DNA from: Limosilactobacillus sp.
Lineage (GTDB): Bacteria > Bacillota > Bacilli > Lactobacillales > Lactobacillaceae
DNA length: 64,000 bases
Direction: 5' to 3'
Assembly (NCBI RefSeq): GCF_022482365.1
Contig: NZ_JAKVPE010000001.1
Coordinates: 620,001 to 684,000, forward strand
Under the pieces are notes generated by a model. The model worked only from the letters and a program-made list of their open reading frames with translations. It searched no databases and was not told where the DNA came from. Below are positions 7,638-26,423 of this stretch, in pieces. Each line of letters opens with the position of its first letter. Positions within the stretch are counted from its first letter, which is position 1. Position numbers and translations under genes: made by a program.

Positions 7638-9143
7638 TTACTTGGTCAGGCCCGTCTTGAAGATGGCGATCCCGTGAACGTTGTACTTTTCGTTATTGGT
7701 CTTCTTCCCGCTGGCCACGTCGATAATGAATTGGATGAACTTGTCGGCGAGACTGTCCATTGATTCATTCATCAATTGTCCGGCATCAAAGTCAATCCAG
7801 CGTGGCTTCAGGTTGGCAATATAGGAGTTTGAGGAAACCTTAACCGTTGGCACGTAGGTTGCAAACGGCGTTCCCCGTCCCGTCGTGAAGAGGACCATCT
7901 GACAATCGGCGGATGCTTCCGCGGATGATGAAACCAGGTCGTTCCCCGGTGCCTGCAGAAGGTTCAGGCCCCGCGTCTTGATCTTGTCACCATACATCAA
8001 GACATCGTTCACGCTGGAAGTACCAGACTTCTGCGTGCAGCCAAGCGACTTGTCCTCCAGAGTTGAGATTCCCCCGGCCTTGTTACCAGGAGATGGGTTT
8101 TCGTAGATTGGCTGGTGGAAGCGTTCGAAGTATTCCTTAAAGTTGTTGATCAGGTGGACAATCTTGTCAAAGGTGGCCTGGTCCTTGGCCCGGGACATCA
8201 GGATCGTCTCCGCACCAAACATTTCTGGAACTTCTGACAAGACCGTCGTCCCGCCCTGGGCAGCAACAAAGTCGGAAAGGCGTCCTAGCAATGGGTTGGC
8301 CGTCACACCAGACAGGCCATCGGAGCCCCCGCACTTCAAGCCAATCTTCAATTCACTGAGTGGTTGCGGAGTACGGTGGTCGTCCTTGACCGCTTCGTTC
8401 AGTTCCTCGAGCATTGCCAAGCCATCGGCAATTTCGTCATCACTGTCAGCAGAAGACAGGAACTTGACCCGTTTCGTGTCGATTGGGCCACCAGCTTTTT
8501 CCAGCAGCTCCTTCATCTTCTTCAGTTCGTCATCGTCTGTGCAACCCAGTCCACAGATCAGAACTGCGCCAGCGTTTGGCTGCATGGCGGCGTCGACTAG
8601 GATCTTGCGTGCCCGCTCATAGTTGTCCTGCGGTGTTTCGATCCCGTAGGTGTGCTTGAGCGGAACCACATTGTCGAAATTGCCGTCGTCTGGGTGGAGG
8701 GCCTTGAATTCGGTAACCAGTGGATCGAGCAGTTCACTGACCGAGCCCACTACCGGGATAATGTAGAGGTCATTCCGGATACCGACCTTGCCGTTTGGCC
8801 GCTTGTAGCCCATGAACTTCCGGTCGTCCTTTTTCCCCTTGGCGGGAACCTTGATTGGGTCGTAGTGGTAAGAAAGCTCACCGGACAGGTTCGTGGCAAT
8901 GTTATGGATGTGGACATGCTCACCGCGCTTGATGTCCTGGGTGGCATGACCAATCGGGTAACCATACTTGATCACGTCGGCACCCTTCTTGATATCCTCC
9001 AAGGCAATCTTATGTCCCCGGGTGATGTCTTCGATGGTGGTGACGTCGCCATGGTCCTGCGTCTTCAGTACCGTGCCTTCAGGGATATCCTGGAGGGCCA
9101 CCGCGACTGAATCGTGGTCATCCAAAATAATGAAATTATTCAT
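7638..9143 (-). CDS. uxaA: Altronate dehydratase (UxaA)
   Basis: Dehydrates D-altronate to 2-keto-3-deoxygluconate, the last step of the galacturonate arm. 501 aa, full length for the family. An N-terminal SAF domain (about 1-90) carries GEHVHIHN at about 74-81. The core has GYKRPNGKVGIRND at about 112-125, CGLGC near 197-201, KCGGSDGLSG at 270-279, SLGCTQKSG at about 367-374 and TGRGTP at about 421-426. All expected signatures are present, unlike in the paralogue at 10738. AAAGGAG lies 8 bases before the ATG. It is the last gene of the uxaB-uxaA-like-galM-eda-uxaA run, 15 bases after eda. Confidence 0.9.
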   Translation of the reverse strand: MNNFIILDDHDSVAVALQDIPEGTVLKTQDHGDVTTIEDITRGHKIALEDIKKGADVIKYGYPIGHATQDIKRGEHVHIHNIATNLSGELSYHYDPIKVPAKGKKDDRKFMGYKRPNGKVGIRNDLYIIPVVGSVSELLDPLVTEFKALHPDDGNFDNVVPLKHTYGIETPQDNYERARKILVDAAMQPNAGAVLICGLGCTDDDELKKMKELLEKAGGPIDTKRVKFLSSADSDDEIADGLAMLEELNEAVKDDHRTPQPLSELKIGLKCGGSDGLSGVTANPLLGRLSDFVAAQGGTTVLSEVPEMFGAETILMSRAKDQATFDKIVHLINNFKEYFERFHQPIYENPSPGNKAGGISTLEDKSLGCTQKSGTSSVNDVLMYGDKIKTRGLNLLQAPGNDLVSSSAEASADCQMVLFTTGRGTPFATYVPTVKVSSNSYIANLKPRWIDFDAGQLMNESMDSLADKFIQFIIDVASGKKTNNEKYNVHGIAIFKTGLTK

Positions 9144-10737: not shown

Positions 10738-12228
10738 CTATTCAGTGACCCCGATCTTGAAGATTGCCAGGCCGTGCAAGCCGGCCTTTTCATTGCTGGT
10801 TTCCTTACCGCTGGCAATCGCGATAATGTCATCAACGAATTCCTTGGCCAGTTCATCAAACGGCTTCGTCAATGCCTGGCCACCATCAAAGTCAAACCAA
10901 CGCTGCTTCTTAGCTGCCAAGGCGGAATCAGCCGCCACCTTCACGGACGGAACAAAGCTGGCGTACGGCGTTGCGACTCCCGTGCTGACAACGACCAGCT
11001 GGCAGTCAGCAGCGGCCTCGGCCGAGGAATCGATCAGGTCGTTGGCCGGCGCTTCCAAGACGTTTAAGCCGGCAGCGCTGACCTTCTTGCCGTAACTGAT
11101 CGCACCGCTGATCGCGGCATCCCCAGCCATCTGCAGGGTATTAACTGCCAATTCCTTGGCGGTCGTAATCCCCTTCGCTTGTTCCTTGGCACTTGGCTCG
11201 TTAACCAATTGTTGGTCAAATTCAGCGTAGTAATCACGCATGTGACCAAAGACGTGCTGAACATCTGCTGCCGCCTCTTGACTTGCGCTTTGCTTGACCA
11301 GCTCGTCTTCTGCGGCGGCCAGGTTCGGCAGCCCAGTCAGGACGGTGCTGCCGCCATTGGCGTTGATCACATTTGCCAGGTGACCCAGTAGGCGGTCAGC
11401 GGTCAACGGCGAAACAGCGGCTGGCTGAACGCTTTGCAGGCCGACCTTCAACTCGCTCAATGGCACCGGCTCACGGTGGTCATTAGCGGCAGCGGTGTTC
11501 AATTCCTCTAGCATTTCCTGGGCCGTGGCAAATTCGTTCTTGACCTCCTGGGCAACCAAGAACTTCATCCGATCCGGATCAATGCCGGCCATCTTTTCGA
11601 TGGTTTCCTTCATCCCGTCCATCTGGTTATTCTCACAGCCCAGGCCGAATACTAAGACACCACCAGCATTGGGATGCAGTGCGGCATCACACAGGATCTG
11701 CCGCGTTTGTTCAAAGTCCTCCCCCAGCTGTGAACAGCCGTAAGGATGCTTTAACAAGATGATGTTGTCAAAGGACCCGTTATCGGGGTGGGCAGCCTTG
11801 AATTGTTGCACCATCACGTCCATCAATGGGGTAATGCAGCCAACGGTCGGTACAATGAAGAGATCGTTGCGGATCCCGACCTTGCCACTCTTCCGCCGGT
11901 AACCCATAAAGGTTTGCTTGGTCAGGTACTTGGACAGGTCCGCTGCTGGAGAAGTCGATTCAGCATCATCTTCAGCCGCGTCACTCAAATTGTGCTCATC
12001 AACCAACTGGCCAGCCTTAACGTCCGCCGTCAAGGTTCCAATGTGCTGCCCAAATTTGACGATGGGTTCGCCAGCAGCCAGGTCCGTCAAGGCAACTTTA
12101 TTGCCAACCGGAACCGCGGCTAATAAATTCAGTTGACGGTCGTTAACATTAACAGTATCTTTGGCAGCTAAGTCCGTCGTGGCAATTGCCACGTTGTCAC
12201 TGTCGTTTAAGATAACCAGTTTTTCCAT
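10738..12228 (-). CDS. UxaA paralogue with degenerate active-site motifs
   Basis: 496 aa and colinear with the UxaA at 7638 over its full length. It shares GYRRKSGKVGIRND (about 109-122), FGLGC (about 194-198), APANDLIDSSAEAAADCQ and the C-terminal SGKETSNEKAGLHGLAIFK. However, the signatures of the active dehydratase are lost: HVHIHN of the SAF domain reads LVDEHN (about 75-80), KCGGSDGLSG reads QSVQPAAVSP (about 265-274), SLGC reads AVNT and TGRGTP reads TGVATP. The frame is intact with a good RBS (AGAGGAG), so this is not simple decay. It may be a non-catalytic partner or have a changed activity. It lies 7 bases after uxaB and 16 before galM-like. Note that annotation by best hit would call it altronate dehydratase. 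Confidence 0.8.
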   Translation of the reverse strand: MEKLVILNDSDNVAIATTDLAAKDTVNVNDRQLNLLAAVPVGNKVALTDLAAGEPIVKFGQHIGTLTADVKAGQLVDEHNLSDAAEDDAESTSPAADLSKYLTKQTFMGYRRKSGKVGIRNDLFIVPTVGCITPLMDVMVQQFKAAHPDNGSFDNIILLKHPYGCSQLGEDFEQTRQILCDAALHPNAGGVLVFGLGCENNQMDGMKETIEKMAGIDPDRMKFLVAQEVKNEFATAQEMLEELNTAAANDHREPVPLSELKVGLQSVQPAAVSPLTADRLLGHLANVINANGGSTVLTGLPNLAAAEDELVKQSASQEAAADVQHVFGHMRDYYAEFDQQLVNEPSAKEQAKGITTAKELAVNTLQMAGDAAISGAISYGKKVSAAGLNVLEAPANDLIDSSAEAAADCQLVVVSTGVATPYASFVPSVKVAADSALAAKKQRWFDFDGGQALTKPFDELAKEFVDDIIAIASGKETSNEKAGLHGLAIFKIGVTE

Positions 12229-12235
12229 GAAACTA

Positions 12236-13657
12236 CTACTCCTCTGCATTAATTTCCTGGACAATTGCCCGGGTGCCCTTTTCGGCAATTTCGTTGTAGT
12301 ACTTGGTTACCAAGTCTTCCAGTCCTGGAATCTTGGTGAGGTCTTCACCCCAGAATTCTGGGTTAGAGAGAGCCTCGTGAATAAAGTTGTCGTCGCCCTG
12401 GATCTTCTTGAAGCCCGCCGCGACATCAGCCGTATCGTTAATTTCAAATTCGGACTTGCCGTTGTAGATCCACATGTAAGCAGCCAGTGCCAAGGTCATC
12501 CGTTCTGGCAGCTTGTTGTACTTAGCGTAGTAACGCTTGTAGTTTGGCAGCAGCCGTGCGGCATACTTGGAAATACTGTTCAGTGCCAGGGCGCTCAGCT
12601 GGTGCTTAACATAAGGATTTTCAAACCGTTCTTGGATCCCCTTGGCGTAGCTGTCCAGTTCTTCCTTCGGCAGCGGAACGACCGGAATGATTTCCTTGTG
12701 CATTTCGTCGTCAATGAACTTGTAGAAGTCCTTGTCGGCCATTACTTGACCAACCGTCTCCAGGCCTGCCAGCCGGCCAATTGGTGACATCGTGGTGTGC
12801 GGGCCGTTTAAGATGGAGACTTTCCGGTTCCGGTATGGCTGCATGTCGTCAGTGACAACCAGGTTGATCCCGGCTTCCTTGAGTGGCAGGACCTTTTCAA
12901 TTTCCTTGTCCCCTTCGATGACGAAGATCAGGAATGGTTCGGTCTTAACCATGTTTTGGTCCTTGTAGCCCCATTCCTTTTCCAGGTCAGCAGCCCGGTC
13001 GCGTGGGTAGCCCGGAACGATCCGGTCAACCAGCGTGGAGTAGAACTTGTTGTCGTTGTTGATCCAGTCAACAAAGTCCTGGCCCAGCTTCCAAAGGTCA
13101 GCATACTGCAGAATGGCCTTCTTCAGTGCATCCCCGTTGTGGTTAATCAGTTCGCACGGAATGATGTGGAAGCCCTTCTTGCCTAATTCGAAACGGTGGT
13201 AAAGCAGTGCCGTTAATTTGGCCGGGTAAGAACTCTTTTCACCCTTCTTCAATGCTTCCAGCGTGTCTTCAGGAACGAATTCAATCCCCGCTTCGGTCGT
13301 GTTGGAGAAGATCACTTCGATGTTGTCATCTTCGGCCAGGGCCAGGTACTTGTCATAGTCGGTGTAGGGGTTAACGGTTCCGTTAATGGATTCAATAATT
13401 TCGTGGCTTTGGATCTTCTTGCCGTCCAGAATTCCTTCCAGCAGAACGGTGTAGAGGTCGTCCTGTTCGTCAAGCTCTTTAATCCGGCCCTGCGGTAGCG
13501 GCTGAACAATCTGGACGCCACCCTTGAAGAGGCCCTGCTTATTCATCTGGTGAATCTGCCAGTCGATGAAGGCCCGCAGAAAATTTCCTTCACCAAATTG
13601 AATTACCTTGTTTGGGTATTGCGGCAATTTACGAAAACTGTTATTAAGTCTATCCAT
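12236..13657 (-). CDS. uxaB: Tagaturonate reductase (altronate oxidoreductase)
   Basis: Reduces D-tagaturonate to D-altronate with NADH, second step of galacturonate breakdown. 473 aa, mannitol dehydrogenase superfamily. The N-terminal nucleotide-binding segment is VIQFGEGNFLRAFIDWQI (about 18-35). The catalytic-domain motif is SILNGPHTTMSPIGRLAG (about 285-302), with the helical C-terminal domain after it. GGAGG precedes the ATG. It is the first gene of a five-gene run behind a promoter with a LacI-type operator in its spacer. Confidence 0.92.
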   Translation of the reverse strand: MDRLNNSFRKLPQYPNKVIQFGEGNFLRAFIDWQIHQMNKQGLFKGGVQIVQPLPQGRIKELDEQDDLYTVLLEGILDGKKIQSHEIIESINGTVNPYTDYDKYLALAEDDNIEVIFSNTTEAGIEFVPEDTLEALKKGEKSSYPAKLTALLYHRFELGKKGFHIIPCELINHNGDALKKAILQYADLWKLGQDFVDWINNDNKFYSTLVDRIVPGYPRDRAADLEKEWGYKDQNMVKTEPFLIFVIEGDKEIEKVLPLKEAGINLVVTDDMQPYRNRKVSILNGPHTTMSPIGRLAGLETVGQVMADKDFYKFIDDEMHKEIIPVVPLPKEELDSYAKGIQERFENPYVKHQLSALALNSISKYAARLLPNYKRYYAKYNKLPERMTLALAAYMWIYNGKSEFEINDTADVAAGFKKIQGDDNFIHEALSNPEFWGEDLTKIPGLEDLVTKYYNEIAEKGTRAIVQEINAEE

Positions 13658-13833
13658 CTTAGAAAACCTCCAGATTAATCAACATGCATCAACAATTTAA
13701 ACCCAGTCCAACGAATTAAGCGGCATCTGTGAGAGGGGCGATGTGCACTTTGTATCAAAGATTGACCGGGATTTAAGGGCGTAGCCACCATTGCTTGGTT
13801 TTCAAATGATGGATGCGCTATCAATATGCTTAT

Positions 13834-13862
13834 ATTATAAAATGTTAACGTGAAACATTCAA
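13834..13862 (-). promoter_or_regulatory. Promoter of the uxaB operon
   Basis: Minus strand TTGAAT (13857-13862), exactly 17 bases, TATAAT (13834-13839). The spacer is almost wholly covered by a LacI-type palindrome (13842-13858), so a bound repressor would exclude RNA polymerase. The gap 13658-13943 holds only this, the long uxaB leader and the terminator of the small peptide gene. Confidence 0.75.
13842..13858 (-). promoter_or_regulatory. LacI-type operator of the uxaB operon
   Basis: ATGTTAACGTGAAACAT: perfect 5-bp outer arms ATGTT/AACAT around a central CG. Shares TGTTAACGTGAA with the site at 14155. Probable binding site of the LacI-family protein at 25404 (inference). Confidence 0.65.
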
Positions 13863-13901
13863 CGCCTTTTTATAATTTTGTTTGGAATTGATCAAATAAT
13901 T

Positions 13902-13935
13902 GTAAAAGGAATACCGCTTGTAAGGCGGCATTCCT
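13902..13935 (-). terminator. Terminator of the small peptide gene
   Basis: Minus-strand stem AGGAATGCCGC / GCGGTATTCCT (11 bp, one G-T), then TTTTACAATTATTT. Placed just after the 57-codon gene. Confidence 0.8.
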
Positions 13936-13943
13936 CATTATTA

Positions 13944-14117
13944 CTACTTGGTAAACTGTTGGTCGGTAGCTTCGTTGTTCTTGCTTACCACGTTAGTCAT
14001 CTGTTGACTGATGCTGTGGCTGTTGGTGGTAGTGGAATAGATGGAGCTGGCACTGGCAATCCCCGCCAGAGCCGCGCTAGCAACGATAAAGATAACAATA
14101 GTCTTAATGAAATTCAT
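13944..14117 (-). CDS. Small secreted or membrane-anchored peptide, 57 aa
   Basis: A short open frame, MNFIKTIVIFIVASAALAGI at its N-terminus, with one lysine, a hydrophobic core of about 15 residues and ASA near 21-23 as a possible signal-peptidase site. The remaining roughly 34 residues are hydrophilic and rich in Ser, Thr, Asn and Gln, with no Cys. Support that it is a real gene: a strong AGGGGAG ribosome binding site, a TTGCAT-16-TACAAT promoter, a LacI-type operator in the leader and its own terminator, all in the right order. It lies between uxuA and uxaB inside the hexuronate locus. No family is recognised and no function is proposed beyond likely export and co-regulation with uronate use. 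Confidence 0.75.
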   Translation of the reverse strand: MNFIKTIVIFIVASAALAGIASASSIYSTTTNSHSISQQMTNVVSKNNEATDQQFTK

Positions 14118-14154
14118 TTAAATTCTCCCCTCTCACAGATCCGTTAGCAATTTT

Positions 14155-14168
14155 TGTTAACGTGAACA
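14155..14168 (-). promoter_or_regulatory. LacI-type operator of the small peptide gene
   Basis: TGTTAACGTGAACA on the plus strand, a nearly perfect 14-bp palindrome with central CG. It lies between the promoter and the ribosome binding site of the 57-aa gene. Confidence 0.7.
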
Positions 14169-14185
14169 GTAAATGAACATTATTC

Positions 14186-14213
14186 ATTGTACTATTGTTA
14201 ATCTGAGATGCAA
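14186..14213 (-). promoter_or_regulatory. Promoter of the small peptide gene
   Basis: Minus strand TTGCAT (14208-14213), 16 bases, TACAAT (14186-14191). The operator at 14155 lies about 18 bases after the -10 box. Confidence 0.6.
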
Positions 14214-14235
14214 GAGATTTGTCTTACTTTTGGGA

Positions 14236-14249
14236 AGTAAACGTTTTCA
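14236..14249 (-). promoter_or_regulatory. Possible second LacI-type or cre-like site
   Basis: Minus strand TGAAAACGTTTACT, one mismatch from the catabolite-responsive element consensus TGWAANCGNTNWCA and also close to TGAAAACGTTAACA at 22686. It lies upstream of the small-peptide promoter, about 81 bases centre to centre from the 14155 operator. Confidence 0.4.
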
Positions 14250-14263
14250 ATTGCCTATCGCTA

Positions 14264-15346
14264 TCAATTGCGTTCCCCAGCACCCTTTTGAATTGCTTCC
14301 CACAAGCCGTTGAGATATGAGATTCCCAGGGCGCGATCATAAAGGCCATAGCCGGGCCGCCCGTTTTCACCCCAGATATTGCGACCGTGATCTGGCCGGA
14401 TATAACCATCAAAGTGCGCTTCGTATAGGGCCCGCATAATTTCGTACATGTCCAGTGATCCTTCAGAGGACAGGTGGGCCGATTCATAGAAATCACCGTT
14501 GGCCATCAGTTTAATGTTGCGGGCATGGATAAAGGGCGCCCGATCCTTTTTCACGAATTCCCGAATAATCGCCGGAACATCATTGGCCGGATTTTCGCCG
14601 AGACTGCCGGTGCAGATCGTAAAGCCATTGTAGCGGGACTCGTGCATCCGTTCGATTGCAAGCATGTCATCACGGTTCTTGAAGATTCGTGGCAGGCCAA
14701 AGAGCGGGCGCGGTGGATCATCCGGGTGAATTGCCATCCGAACGCCGCACTTTTCGCAGGTTGGAATAATGGCGTCGAGAAAGTACTTCAGATTTTCACG
14801 CAGCCGCCGCTCATCAACCCCCTCGTAGGCTTCAAACAGGTGCTTAACCTTGGCCAAGCGCTCCGGTTCCCAACCGGGCAAAACGTAGCCGTTGGAATTT
14901 TCCTCTACCGACCTGATAATCTCTGCCGGTGAGCCTTCTACAAGTTGGTGCTGGAAGGCCAGGTCCGTGGATCCGTCAGCCAGTGGATAATGGAGGTCGG
15001 TCCGCACCCAGTCAAAGATCGGCATGAAGTTGTAGCAGATCACCTTAATCCCATAGGCCGCCAGGTTTTCAATCGTCCGCTGGTAGTTTTCAATGTATCG
15101 GTCCCGGCTTGGCAGGCCGATCTTGATGTCATCGTGGACGTTGACCGACTCGATCACCTCAAGTTTCAGGCCGGCAGCCTCAACCTCTTTTTTCAGGGCC
15201 GCGATCCGTTCCTTTGGCCAAACCTCCCCGACCGGAATGTCAAAGAGGGCCCCGACGACCTGGCTCGTTCCCGGAATCTGGCGAATGTCGCGGAGCTTAA
15301 TTGAATCGTTTTGCTTCCCGTACCAGCGAAATCCCATGTTTTTCAT
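14264..15346 (-). CDS. uxuA: Mannonate dehydratase
   Basis: Dehydrates D-mannonate to 2-keto-3-deoxygluconate, third step of the glucuronate arm; a metal-dependent TIM-barrel enzyme. 360 aa. The start MKNMGFRWYGKQNDSIKLRDIRQIPG is typical, and conserved stretches VICYNFMPIFDWVRTDL (about 102-118), MAIHPDDPP (about 203-211), TGSLG and IRPDHGR (about 316-322) are present. AGAAGGGAG precedes the ATG, 15 bases after uxuB. No clear terminator follows before the small peptide promoter. Confidence 0.93.
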   Translation of the reverse strand: MKNMGFRWYGKQNDSIKLRDIRQIPGTSQVVGALFDIPVGEVWPKERIAALKKEVEAAGLKLEVIESVNVHDDIKIGLPSRDRYIENYQRTIENLAAYGIKVICYNFMPIFDWVRTDLHYPLADGSTDLAFQHQLVEGSPAEIIRSVEENSNGYVLPGWEPERLAKVKHLFEAYEGVDERRLRENLKYFLDAIIPTCEKCGVRMAIHPDDPPRPLFGLPRIFKNRDDMLAIERMHESRYNGFTICTGSLGENPANDVPAIIREFVKKDRAPFIHARNIKLMANGDFYESAHLSSEGSLDMYEIMRALYEAHFDGYIRPDHGRNIWGENGRPGYGLYDRALGISYLNGLWEAIQKGAGERN

Positions 15347-18109: not shown

Positions 18110-19330
18110 CTATTCTGCGTATTCAAGGGCGTAGTTGGTCAACAGGTCGCGCATGATCAGCATGACGTTCTTGCCCAAGCGGGCCTCTTCATCGTTGCCG
18201 AGCATCGCGTAGGCAAGGATCAACTGACCATCATAGGTGCTGACTGCCACCTGGAACATTGGTGCACGCCGGTAGCTCCCCAGCATGTCAAAGTCGGTCA
18301 CCTGACAACCGGCAAAGTGGAATTTAGCTTTGTCGACAATTCCAAAGTTAGTATAGGAAATCGTCCGGACGTGATAATTTTCCTCACAGATCTGCTGAAG
18401 TTGGGCCAGCGAGTAGTTGGCGTAATTATCAACCAGTGTTTTGACTGATTCAAGGCATTGGAACTGCTCCTTGTTGGCCGCCATTGCGCGGTGAACGGCC
18501 TGAACGGCGGTTGCAAACGGGGCCTGCGGGTCGGAAGCAACACTAATATTATACCGCGAAGTATGATTAGCAACTCGCAGTTCTGGCGAGCCCGGAATAA
18601 ATTTCCGCATGTCGGTTGGGCAGGCTAGTGAAATCTGCTCGGTCGCCGAGAAGCGTTGGACGGCCTGTCCATAGGCCGCCATGAAGAGGTCATTTAAGGT
18701 GACCCCGGTGGCGTGGCCTGCCTTAATCAGCTTGGACAAGAACTCTTCGTCCAGGTGCAGGGCTCCCGTCCGGTAATGCTGGTCGTGGGAGTCGGCAAGC
18801 TGAGGCATCGTCAGCGGGTCGGCCGGGTGATCGGCCCCCTTTTTGACCTCAACCGGATGCTGGGCCAGCAAGTCGTGCAGCCAATCGATATCGGTATGAT
18901 TTTCAACCGTGCTTAGATCATCACCATTATATGCCCGGGCCAGCAGGGTCATGAACTGCTTAGCACCGGCCCCGTCGGTCAGGATGTGGCTGAGGTAGAT
19001 CGTCACATCCTGTCCTGTTTCCACTTGATTCAGATAAACGCGCAACTGGGGATCGCAAAACAGGTCCCACTTGGCCCAGTCCGCGTCTGGATCGATTCCC
19101 TGAAAGAGGACGCCGGTTAAATCATCAGTCACGGTCACAAAGCTGTTGTCAGCAAGAACGTACTTGCAAAACAATTCTGGAATTGCCCGTCCGCACGCTA
19201 ACAGGGCCGCCTGAAATCGTTTCAGATCAAAATTCCCGGTTAAGACAAAGTGAATCCGGACAATCGGGTAGAGTTCATCCATCCCAATCGTATGCAAAAT
19301 ATTCAATGGGTTCCCGCGATATACTGCCAT
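18110..19330 (-). CDS. Condensation/alcohol-acyltransferase-like protein
   Basis: 406 aa with the chloramphenicol-acetyltransferase-like fold of condensation domains and alcohol acetyltransferases. The catalytic motif HxxxDG appears as SHILTDGAGA at about residue 115-124. A second conserved element, TNFG (about 340), matches the C-terminal DFG-type motif of this superfamily. The protein begins NPLNILHTIGMDELYPIVRIHFVL, as such enzymes often do. Its substrate is unknown: it could acylate a sugar, an alcohol or a lipid. It lies between uxaC and kdgK on the same strand, directly after the structured repeat at 19352, so it may be partly uncoupled from uxaC. No other member of the hexuronate pathway needs an acyl transfer. 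Confidence 0.65.
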   Translation of the reverse strand: MAVYRGNPLNILHTIGMDELYPIVRIHFVLTGNFDLKRFQAALLACGRAIPELFCKYVLADNSFVTVTDDLTGVLFQGIDPDADWAKWDLFCDPQLRVYLNQVETGQDVTIYLSHILTDGAGAKQFMTLLARAYNGDDLSTVENHTDIDWLHDLLAQHPVEVKKGADHPADPLTMPQLADSHDQHYRTGALHLDEEFLSKLIKAGHATGVTLNDLFMAAYGQAVQRFSATEQISLACPTDMRKFIPGSPELRVANHTSRYNISVASDPQAPFATAVQAVHRAMAANKEQFQCLESVKTLVDNYANYSLAQLQQICEENYHVRTISYTNFGIVDKAKFHFAGCQVTDFDMLGSYRRAPMFQVAVSTYDGQLILAYAMLGNDEEARLGKNVMLIMRDLLTNYALEYAE

Positions 19331-22805: not shown

Positions 22806-23564
22806 CTATAAATGCTGTTGAATCAGTTTTTGTGTCCGCTTTCCTAATCTGACAAAGGCCGTCCGCTTGTCGGTGGTCAGCCGGAATTCCGGGGTGCTAA
22901 TACTGAACGCCCCGTATGTCCGATGATGAGCAACGATCGCAAAGCCAAGGCAATAAACCCCCGGCTGGTTTTCAACATTATCGATCGCATAGCCACGCTC
23001 CCGAACGGCAGCCAGGTCCCTTTGCAAAGCAGTCTGGTCAACAATCGTGTTTGGCGTCAGTCTCTCAAAATGCACACGTTGAAAATAGTTGGCCAAGTGC
23101 TGGGGCGAATAGGTGGCCAAAAGCGCTTTCCCCATTGCCGACGAGTACATATTCATTGTCCCGCCAATCACGGAAACCAGCTTAATGCTGTGCGTGCTCT
23201 CCATCTTGGATAAAAGCACAATTTTATCATCCTGTTCAATCCCGAGGTTCACCGTTTCCGCGGTCTGGTCCCGGAGCGTTTTGAGAAACGGGGTGGCAAT
23301 TTCTACAATGTCAATCGAGTCATTCACCGTCTGTGCATAATGCAGAAAGACCGTCCCCAGGCGATAGGTCTTTTGATCGCCATTCACAATGGTGCGAACG
23401 TAGCCACAGTATTCGAGCGTTTGGATGATCTTGTAAATGGTTGGTTTCGAAATGTTCAGGTGTTCATCAAGCTCACTGAGCGTCGGTGCCTCCGTGGTCG
23501 ATGCGAGGTAGTCAAGGATCTGTCTGGCCTTTAGCAGAACGGTCCCGTAAAGCTTCTCTGTCAT
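22806..23564 (-). CDS. IclR-family transcriptional regulator, KdgR-like
   Basis: 252 aa. The N-terminal winged helix (about 8-65) has ARQILDYLASTTEAPTLSEL and SKPTIYKIIQTLEYCGYV as helix-turn-helix. The C-terminal IclR effector domain (about 80-250) has GKALLATYSPQHL and RERGYAIDNVENQPGVYCLGFAI. It is the third gene after kduI and kduD, 20 bases behind kduD, which points to control of that operon. By analogy with enterobacterial KdgR the effector would be KDG or a related keto-uronate. Its likely target is the palindrome at 25282. Family call is firm, effector is inference. Confidence 0.85.
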   Translation of the reverse strand: MTEKLYGTVLLKARQILDYLASTTEAPTLSELDEHLNISKPTIYKIIQTLEYCGYVRTIVNGDQKTYRLGTVFLHYAQTVNDSIDIVEIATPFLKTLRDQTAETVNLGIEQDDKIVLLSKMESTHSIKLVSVIGGTMNMYSSAMGKALLATYSPQHLANYFQRVHFERLTPNTIVDQTALQRDLAAVRERGYAIDNVENQPGVYCLGFAIVAHHRTYGAFSISTPEFRLTTDKRTAFVRLGKRTQKLIQQHL

Positions 23565-25403: not shown

Positions 25404-26423
25404 TTAATTGTTATTTCTTTTGACCGACTCCCGAACGACCAACGATGGCTTGCTACCGATGACTCGATCGGTCTGGGGGGTATTGCCATCAATCAGCTCC
25501 TTCAAGGTTAGGACGCCGTTGCGAGAGATTTCCATGACCGGCTTACGAATCGTGGTGATCCGGGGATGATAAAACTTGGAATAGGTGTTGTCGTCAAACC
25601 CGATAAACGAGATTTGGTTCGGAACATCATAGCCGTAATCGTAGCAGGCGCGGATCGCCCCCATCGCCATATCATCGTTTTCGGCAAAGACGCTGGTTGG
25701 CAATTCACCGCTGTTGAGGATTTTTTCCATTGCCTGGTAGCCGGAACTGAGGCTATAGTTCCCCGCCACTTGCCATTCCGCAGGCAATGAGATGTGGTTT
25801 TTCTTTAACACGTCGCAGAATGCTTGGGTCCGTAGCTTCGTCGAGACGAAACCCTCCCGACCGGAAATCAGGGCAATTTTGCGGTGGCCCATTCGGAGCA
25901 GGTAATTGATCGCGGTTGACGTCCCCAGGTAATCATCCGAATAGTAATTGTACAGGTCAGTGCGTTCAATCTGCCGGTTTAAGACTACCAGCGGCTTGCC
26001 GGTCGCGGCCAGCTGGTCGATGTATTCATCATCGGAAGCCGCCTGACTCAACACTAGTGCCCCGTCAAAACGGAAGTTAATGTTTTGGTGGGAACGACGC
26101 AGATTGGCAAAGCTGTCGACCGCAATCTCATAACCCGTCGGCAAGAATTCCCTAATTTGGTGAAGAACGGCGGACATGAAGCTCGGTGACGTCCCATCCG
26201 ACATGTCGGTAAAGTAAACCGCAATGATAAAGGATTTTTTCTCGACCAGGGCCTTGGCGTTCAGGTTCGGCGAATAGTTCATCTGCTCAGCGAGCTGCCT
26301 GATCTTTTTCTTGGTTTCTTCCTTAACCAGCGGGCTATCGTTTAAGGCCCGTGAGACCGTTGTGTGTGAGACATTCGCCTTCTTGGCAATTGTCTTAATC
26401 GTTACTTTAGCGCTCCCATTCAC
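25404..26423 (-). CDS. LacI-family transcriptional regulator
   Basis: 339 aa. The helix-turn-helix and hinge helix lie at about residue 8-60 (TIKTIAKKANVSHTTVSRAL, then YSPNLNAKALVEKKS). The periplasmic-binding-protein-like effector domain has FDGALVLSQ, VVLNRQ, GHRKIALISG (about 180-190), FAENDDMAMGAIRACYDYG and ISFIGFDDNTYSKFYHPRITTIRKP. GTG start with GGGGGAG upstream. It is monocistronic, upstream of the kdu operon and convergent with nothing. It probably binds the CG-centred palindromes at 13842, 14155, 22686 and its own upstream site at 26530. The effector, perhaps a hexuronate or KDG, is inferred. Confidence 0.88.
   Translation of the reverse strand: MNGSAKVTIKTIAKKANVSHTTVSRALNDSPLVKEETKKKIRQLAEQMNYSPNLNAKALVEKKSFIIAVYFTDMSDGTSPSFMSAVLHQIREFLPTGYEIAVDSFANLRRSHQNINFRFDGALVLSQAASDDEYIDQLAATGKPLVVLNRQIERTDLYNYYSDDYLGTSTAINYLLRMGHRKIALISGREGFVSTKLRTQAFCDVLKKNHISLPAEWQVAGNYSLSSGYQAMEKILNSGELPTSVFAENDDMAMGAIRACYDYGYDVPNQISFIGFDDNTYSKFYHPRITTIRKPVMEISRNGVLTLKELIDGNTPQTDRVIGSKPSLVVRESVKRNNN

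What the first reader, a model, noticed from the sequence alone, without database searches (positions are those of the whole stretch)
13944..14117. A 57-codon secreted peptide gene wired into the hexuronate regulon
Seen directly: a short frame with signal-peptide-like N-terminus, AGGGGAG, a TTGCAT-16-TACAAT promoter, the best LacI-type palindrome in the window (TGTTAACGTGAACA) in its leader, and its own terminator. It lies between uxuA and uxaB. An exported, Ser/Thr/Asn/Gln-rich 34-residue product co-regulated with uronate catabolism is not part of any described uronate pathway. It could be a transporter accessory peptide, a signal or a surface peptide.
Basis: partly seen in the sequence, partly recalled or inferred. 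Interest (0 to 1): 0.75.

Follow-up and report, generated by a model that had tools for sequence, protein, structure and literature searches.

The report
Exported peptide with antisense uxaB leader
In some gut lactobacilli a conserved 57-residue, probably exported peptide is encoded right before the galacturonate gene uxaB, and its ribosome-binding site matches in antisense a loop in the uxaB mRNA leader, suggesting an unsuspected RNA link between a tiny peptide and sugar-acid use.

Summary
The frame is real. It shows strong purifying selection (pN below pS in 36 of 36 species pairs) and lies directly upstream of uxaB in every Limosilactobacillus genome found to hold this uxaB (9 of 50). The peptide and uxaB promoters both carry TGTTNACGT-type operators in 8 of 8 species with intergenic DNA. 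The window's peptide passes no Pfam or NCBIfam cut-off and looks Sec-exported or membrane-bound. Uninterrupted pairing of 9-14 bp persists in 6 of 8 species and is weak in two. Strong matches to the leader RNA occur only at uxaB (8 of 47 genomes). I read this as a hexuronate-regulon exported microprotein whose translation is coupled by mRNA-mRNA pairing to the uxaB transcript. Gene, linkage and complementarity are shown; induction, export, pairing in cells, its direction and the peptide's target are inferred. A general transporter accessory is disfavoured: five of six uxaC-positive, uxaB-negative genomes showed no peptide.

The parts
13944..14117 (-). 57-codon ORF of the peptide: n-region with K5, hydrophobic core, conserved A/V-x-A before SS (putative signal peptidase site after residue 23), polar 34-residue C-terminal part
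   Evidence: 9 orthologs incl. own, 17 invariant columns
14127..14140 (-). Ribosome-binding region AUCUGUGAGAGGGG, exact complement of 13725-13738
14155..14168 (.). LacI-type palindrome TGTTAACGTGAACA in the peptide's 5' leader; conserved in 8 of 8 species with intergenic DNA
14186..14213 (-). Peptide promoter TTGCAT-16-TACAAT
   Evidence: (read directly), recognisable in 8 of 8; not listed
14236..14250 (-). cre-like site TTGAAAACGTTTACT (CcpA-type consensus, recalled); the pattern occurs twice in the window, 1.3 expected, so weak by itself
13903..13938 (-). Hairpin after the peptide's stop codon, likely weak terminator
   Evidence: z -6.99; not listed
13834..13862 (-). uxaB promoter TTGAAT-17-TATAAT with operator-like TTTCACGTTAACAT (13843-13856) in its spacer
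13658..13829 (-). Long uxaB 5' leader (about 170 nt; start inferred from the -10 box); strong matches to its RNA model only at uxaB in the genus
13725..13738 (-). C-rich element CCCCUCUCACAGAU, antisense to the peptide's SD; predicted loop of the CAUC/GAUG hairpin (13724-13743)
13667..13671 (-). uxaB Shine-Dalgarno GGAGG, able to pair with CCUCU of the C-rich element in cis
12236..13657 (-). uxaB, tagaturonate reductase by context (Mannitol_dh domains)
14264..15346 (-). uxuA, mannonate dehydratase; upstream neighbour of the peptide in 3 of 9 genomes

Best explanation
The finding is a genuine gene for a small, probably exported (or membrane-anchored) peptide of the hexuronate regulon. It has its own operator-bearing promoter and is presumably repressed and induced together with the adjacent uxaB, which has a promoter of its own. 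The uxaB mRNA begins with a long leader that presents a C-rich loop complementary to the peptide's ribosome-binding site. When uxaB mRNA accumulates, the loop pairs with the peptide mRNA and blocks its translation, so the peptide would be made early or at low uronate flux and shut off once galacturonate catabolism is running. If transcription reads through the weak hairpin, the same pairing could act in cis. Shown here: gene, selection, linkage, operator-like sites, complementarity, and that strong matches to the leader RNA occur only at uxaB. Inferred: export, induction, repression by a LacI-type protein, pairing in cells, and its direction. The peptide's own activity is open; my best guess is an envelope-facing peptide with an amphipathic helix.
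For: Purifying selection; peptide in 9 of 9 uxaB genomes of the genus and directly upstream of uxaB in all nine, whatever lies on the other side. 14-nt exact complement in the window, and helices of 9-14 bp in 6 of 8 species, reached by 0-2 of 1000 dinucleotide shuffles of the leader. TGTGAGAGG occurs at only 7 places in the 2.34-Mb genome (5 for the reversed control), two of them here as mutual complements. The C-rich site is 77-100% unpaired in the predicted leader ensemble in 5 of 8 species. Predicted peptide SD openness falls to 0.00-0.09 on pairing in 5 of 8. Strong leader-RNA matches only at uxaB, one in each of 8 of 47 genomes. Upstream of uxaB in 13 genomes outside the genus neither GTGAGAGG nor the full C-rich motif is found (0 of 13). 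Alanine before the presumed cleavage site invariant in 9 of 9.
Against: In G011 the helix is 7 bp (251 of 1000 shuffles as good) and in G021 8 bp with one G-U (60 of 1000; its cis helix is equally strong, -14.0). Joint folding is not better than shuffles in G034 (16/60), G011 (33/60) and G021 (37/60), and in the window itself it hardly lowers the openness of the peptide's SD (0.48 to 0.41). RNAduplex is not better than shuffles in G012, G011 and G021. Complementarity is not species-matched: foreign leaders often score as well as the own one. The hairpin that would present the loop has no double compensatory change among its 4 pairs. The C-rich element can instead pair with uxaB's own SD. No expression data. 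No signal-peptide predictor was available.
Confidence: 0.45

Rival explanations
1. The peptide is real, but the C-rich element is a cis element only: an anti-SD that masks uxaB's own SD (a leader switch of unknown trigger). Its match to the peptide's SD follows from both SDs being purine-rich.
For: CCUCU/GGAGG pairs are kept in all 8 species apart from one gap cell; the four-sequence clade-1 fold also pairs the element with the uxaB SD region. In G021 cis and trans helices are equally strong.
Against: The best helices of the uxaB SD region with any part of its leader are 5-11 bp, -9.9 to -14.2 kcal/mol, against -19 to -31 in trans in six of eight species. GUGAG upstream of the peptide's SD proper is kept in 7 of 8 although a ribosome does not need it. 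In five of eight species the element is predicted to be mostly unpaired.
Confidence: 0.3
2. The reverse direction: the peptide's mRNA is a dual-function RNA that pairs with the leader and frees the uxaB SD, activating uxaB.
For: Predicted uxaB SD openness rises on pairing in G039 (0.03 to 0.41) and G021 (0.10 to 0.39).
Against: No such rise in the other six of eight.
Confidence: 0.12
3. The peptide is an accessory subunit of the hexuronate transporter (MFS_2).
For: Membrane-targeting N-terminus; in G014 a diverged 47-codon homolog lies next to the MFS transporter gene.
Against: G030 keeps MFS (85%) and uxaC (88%) with no peptide found; the fixed neighbour is uxaB, not the transporter.
Confidence: 0.15
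4. A type I toxin-antitoxin-like pair: a small hydrophobic peptide kept silent by an antisense RNA (the uxaB leader).
For: Short peptide with hydrophobic N-terminus and an antisense element against its SD.
Against: The polar C-terminal part is under similar constraint to the hydrophobic part; the hexuronate operator and fixed metabolic context are unlike a mobile TA module; the Rfam antitoxin hit (OrzO-P, 23.4 bits against a cut-off of 60) is far below threshold.
Confidence: 0.05

Closest known systems
SgrS/SgrT dual-function RNA (PMC4021124, passages seen)
   Same: Small protein tied to sugar metabolism together with an RNA base-pairing function
   Different: SgrT is 43 aa and inhibits the glucose transporter PtsG in enterics (not exported: recalled); the pairing region lies downstream of the ORF; here the pairing region is the SD itself and the partner is the neighbouring mRNA's leader
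VcdRP of Vibrio cholerae (PMC8672173, abstract and section list seen)
   Same: Dual-function RNA with a 29-aa protein and a base-pairing segment, carbon metabolism
   Different: Base-pairing segment inhibits carbon transport; the protein binds citrate synthase; no exported peptide and no neighbouring-leader partner described in the abstract
Listeria SreA leader acting in trans on prfA, and hly-prsA2 mRNA pairing (review PMC8079631, passages seen)
   Same: An mRNA leader, or an mRNA, base-pairs in trans with another mRNA's 5' UTR
   Different: SreA is the product of a terminated SAM riboswitch and pairs about 80 nt upstream of the SD; hly uses its 3' UTR; the target is not a small exported peptide
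RoxS/RsaE C-rich-region sRNAs (PMC5419742, passages seen)
   Same: C-rich region pairs with G-rich target 5' regions in Firmicutes
   Different: A small regulatory RNA with several targets; here part of a coding mRNA leader

Membership tests
Sec-exported small peptide | n-region charge, hydrophobic core, small residues at -3/-1 | tested here: met
   By eye on alignment A1: K5 invariant, A23 (-1) invariant, A or V at -3 in 9 of 9; no predictor was run
Sec-exported small peptide | Detected outside the cytoplasm | not testable with these tools
   needs proteomics
Lipoprotein | Lipobox with Cys | tested here: not met
   Only G039 (1 of 9) has LLAGC
Known Pfam/NCBIfam/PHROG family | Score above the curated cut-off | tested here: not met
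   Window peptide: best Pfam GPHR_N 19.2 bits against 22.1, best NCBIfam 15.7 against 75. Over the 9 members the best NCBIfam E is 2.3e-4 (a lipoprotein family, 1 of 9; cut-off not shown) and the best PHROG E 1.8e-4 (unknown function, 2 of 9; no curated cut-offs)
Dual-function RNA (SgrS-like) | RNA encodes a protein and regulates by base pairing | tested here: inconclusive
   Protein: selection shown. Pairing: complementarity only, beyond shuffles in 6 of 8
Known structured RNA family | Rfam match at gathering score | tested here: not met
   13600-14300 searched at E up to 5: four hits, all below gathering score
Type I toxin-antitoxin | Toxic small hydrophobic peptide, antisense RNA | not tested
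   toxicity needs an experiment

The most novel reading that the evidence does not exclude
Two neighbouring mRNAs of one catabolic regulon control each other by direct leader-leader pairing: the uxaB mRNA leader is at once a cis SD-masking element and a trans antisense RNA against an exported peptide's mRNA, forming a two-gene toggle that meters a uronate-responsive extracellular peptide.
Probability: 0.25. Interest if true: 0.8.

Novelty: new variant of a known kind. Interest (0 to 1): 0.55.

Why it matters
An uncharacterised exported microprotein that is inseparable from a galacturonate gene in gut lactobacilli would add a surface or signalling output to pectin-sugar use. If the leader pairing is real, an ordinary metabolic mRNA doubles as an antisense regulator of its neighbour, without a dedicated sRNA gene. 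Both claims are cheaply testable in non-pathogenic strains.

Tried and rejected
Spurious ORF: rejected (selection, 9 orthologs incl. own). Mobile or viral origin: no relative in the plasmid collection or the viral contigs; the phage-record collection was not searched. Free-standing copies of the leader RNA: the covariance model gave 8 strong matches, all at uxaB, and two at E 0.64 and 0.82 in G031 and G014 that I did not inspect; stricter filters were used and at most 57 first-look candidates per genome were scored, so weak copies could be missed. Other copies of the C-rich motif: the pattern matched 15 places in 12 of 47 genomes, 2 in the reversed control. Seven are uxaB leaders; of the 8 others I inspected 6. 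L087, L089 and L092 lie opposite the SD of one gene, L086 also reads as a start region on the opposite strand, L090 lies in coding sequence, and the G039:C114 site seems to lie near a coding end (by eye). I take these as chance. Other TGTGAGAGG sites in the own genome: five besides the pair; L080 and L081 look like SDs of other genes and could be further targets, not pursued. Upstream ORF in the leader: reading frames differ between species by eye, rejected. RNAduplex with long gapped helices was a poor test; I then used uninterrupted helices and joint folding, and all three results are reported. AlphaFold job had not finished at polls 71, 76, 79, 80, 83, 86, 89, 92 and 94; no structure is used. 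Literature: in the listings of five searches (3 of 3, 15 of 82, 10 of 97, 10 of 63 and 8 of 9 papers listed) I saw no title or abstract on a peptide or leader of this kind; the L. suebicus galacturonate paper (PMC6978723, passages seen) mentions none in those passages.

Full report
Observation. The frame at 13944-14117 (-) is present as described: ATG, 57 codons, purine-rich SD, TTGCAT-16-TACAAT, and the palindrome TGTTAACGTGAACA at 14155-14168. The palindrome is the only zero-mismatch site in the window; at up to 2 mismatches there are 4 sites against 0.32 expected. The genome is a single 2,335,319-base contig. The one named relative of this gene that I found is in Limosilactobacillus kribbianus (77% identical peptide); the genus of the window is inferred from it.

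Is it a gene? Searching 95 genomes (own included), the peptide had a match at E up to 1 in 35, of which 9 (own plus 8 of the same genus) were below 1e-10, and one more (G014) was at 1.7e-4. The nine aligned peptides keep 17 invariant columns. In all 36 pairs pN is far below pS; where dS could be computed, dN/dS is 0.05-0.20. Signal-like and mature parts are both constrained.

Linkage. uxaB-like genes (E up to 1e-100) occur in 9 of 50 genus genomes, exactly the nine with the strong peptide match. In all nine the peptide is immediately upstream of uxaB on the same strand; the gene on the other side is uxuA in three (own, G034, G002), another gene in G025, and a condensation-domain gene in five. 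UxaC passes its cut-off in 15 of 47 genus genomes. Of the six of these without uxaB, only G014 has a (diverged, 47-codon) homolog, beside the MFS transporter; five show none by search or by a local motif scan of the fetched regions, which do not cover every uxaC copy. In 397 sampled family genomes uxaB was found in 16, 13 of them outside the genus. In the 1.5 kb upstream of these 13, a filter for short frames with a hydrophobic start listed three, none like the peptide, and neither GTGAGAGG nor the full C-rich motif occurs (0 of 13); a loose form of the C-rich core, CTTTTCAC, occurs far upstream in three. The profile search of the same 397 gave 14 genomes at E up to 0.01; the nine outside the genus are weak (3.6e-4 to 0.009), several inside long frames or interrupted by stops, and I take them as chance.

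Regulation by DNA. In 8 of 8 species with intergenic DNA the operator follows the peptide promoter, and an operator-like TTTCACGTTAACAT fills the spacer of the uxaB promoter TTGAAW-17-TATAAT. A LacI-family gene (25404-26423) and an IclR-family gene (22806-23564) lie in the window; which protein binds is not known. LacI-family regulators of glucuronate and galacturonate use are known elsewhere (ExuR, KdgR, UxaR, UxuR; PMC4052901, passages seen). A cre-like site lies upstream, at a frequency compatible with chance.

The unreported feature. The peptide's RBS, AUCUGUGAGAGGGG (14127-14140), is the exact complement of CCCCUCUCACAGAU (13725-13738) in the uxaB leader. The best uninterrupted helix between SD region and leader is 14 bp in the window, 12 in G034, 14 in G002, 11 in G025, 9 in G012, 10 in G039, 8 in G021 and 7 in G011. 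Shuffled leaders reached its energy in 0, 1, 0, 1, 2, 0, 60 and 251 of 1000 respectively. As a further control, 17 other gene starts of the window (uxaB's own among them) were paired with the window's leader: the best reached -19.8 and -19.4 kcal/mol, against -30.9 for the peptide. TGTGAGAGG is present at 7 places in the genome, 5 in the reversed control. GUGAG is kept in 7 of 8 peptide leaders although the sequence between operator and SD diverges.

Results against. RNAduplex energies with long gapped helices beat shuffles clearly in three species only (1 of 300 as good in the window, G034 and G025), marginally in G002 (14) and G039 (12), and not in G012, G011 and G021 (168, 182, 121 of 300); foreign leaders often score as well as the own one. 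Joint folding: 0 of 60 shuffles in the window and G025, 3 in G002, G012 and G039, 16 in G034, 33 in G011, 37 in G021; and in the window the openness of the peptide's SD changes little (0.48 to 0.41). Searches used an approximate 18-nt uxaB start. Joint folding cannot represent a loop pairing while its stem stays closed, so it may understate the effect.

The leader RNA. It is about 150-175 nt long, and a model of it finds one strong copy in each of 8 genomes, all at uxaB, in 47 searched; two further hits are at E 0.64 and 0.82. The ninth uxaB genome, G018, has no intergenic DNA between these genes in its record. Rfam has no match at threshold. Structural evidence is modest: 90.6% of cells pair in the P1 plus C-loop structure (9 of 500 shuffles as high; covariation score 8 of 500), but only 2 pairs show double changes (171 of 500 shuffles), none of them in the C-loop stem. 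The C-rich element may alternatively mask the uxaB SD. The separate clade folds differ, so the exact fold is unsettled.

Mechanism. The most economical reading is that translation of the peptide is limited by the uxaB mRNA: predicted peptide SD openness falls to 0.00-0.09 on pairing in 5 of 8, while uxaB SD openness rises clearly in only 2 of 8. A cis version through read-through is possible, because the hairpin between the genes has a poor U-tail. The peptide's activity is unknown; the C-terminal segment has a moderate hydrophobic moment (0.34-0.43 in four homologs), compatible with an amphipathic helix at a membrane or a partner protein.

Comparison. It works somewhat like SgrS/SgrT, VcdRP, the Listeria SreA and hly-prsA2 interactions and C-rich sRNAs such as RoxS (passages or abstracts seen). 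I made no sequence comparison with these RNAs beyond the Rfam scan of 13600-14300, and do not file it as a member of any. I saw no paper on this peptide or leader in the listings of searches (open-licence library only, listings capped).

Noticed in passing
L039 (G018:C1:1417000-1436900): Ten consecutive genes abut exactly, stop codon to ATG, with no intergenic DNA: the record looks like concatenated coding sequences, with the peptide included as one of them.
   Followed up: partly
window 18110-19330 (-): Condensation-domain (PF00668, 37.6 bits) acyltransferase-like gene inside the uronate cluster; directly upstream of the peptide in five genomes. Its role there is unclear.
   Followed up: partly
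L038 9296-9472 (G039): This ortholog alone of nine has a lipobox-like LLAGC, so it may be a lipoprotein in that species.
   Followed up: no
L040 9518-9664 (G014): Diverged 47-codon homolog between the MFS transporter and a GntR-like regulator gene (named by eye); its coding sequence contains an operator-like TGTTAACGTGATCA, repeated downstream.
   Followed up: no
window 7638-9143 and 10738-12231 (-): Two UxaA-type dehydratase paralogs in one cluster, about 42% identical judged by cross-matches in relatives; the second has only a weak SAF domain.
   Followed up: no
L087, L089, L092: CACATCATCCTTTCAC, close to the uxaB-leader motif, is the complement of the SD region of another gene; probably coincidence, but a possible further target.
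   Followed up: partly
L080, L081 (G000:C1:1078575 and 1439312): Two other genes of the same genome have UGUGAGAGGAG as apparent SD and could also pair with the uxaB leader.
   Followed up: no
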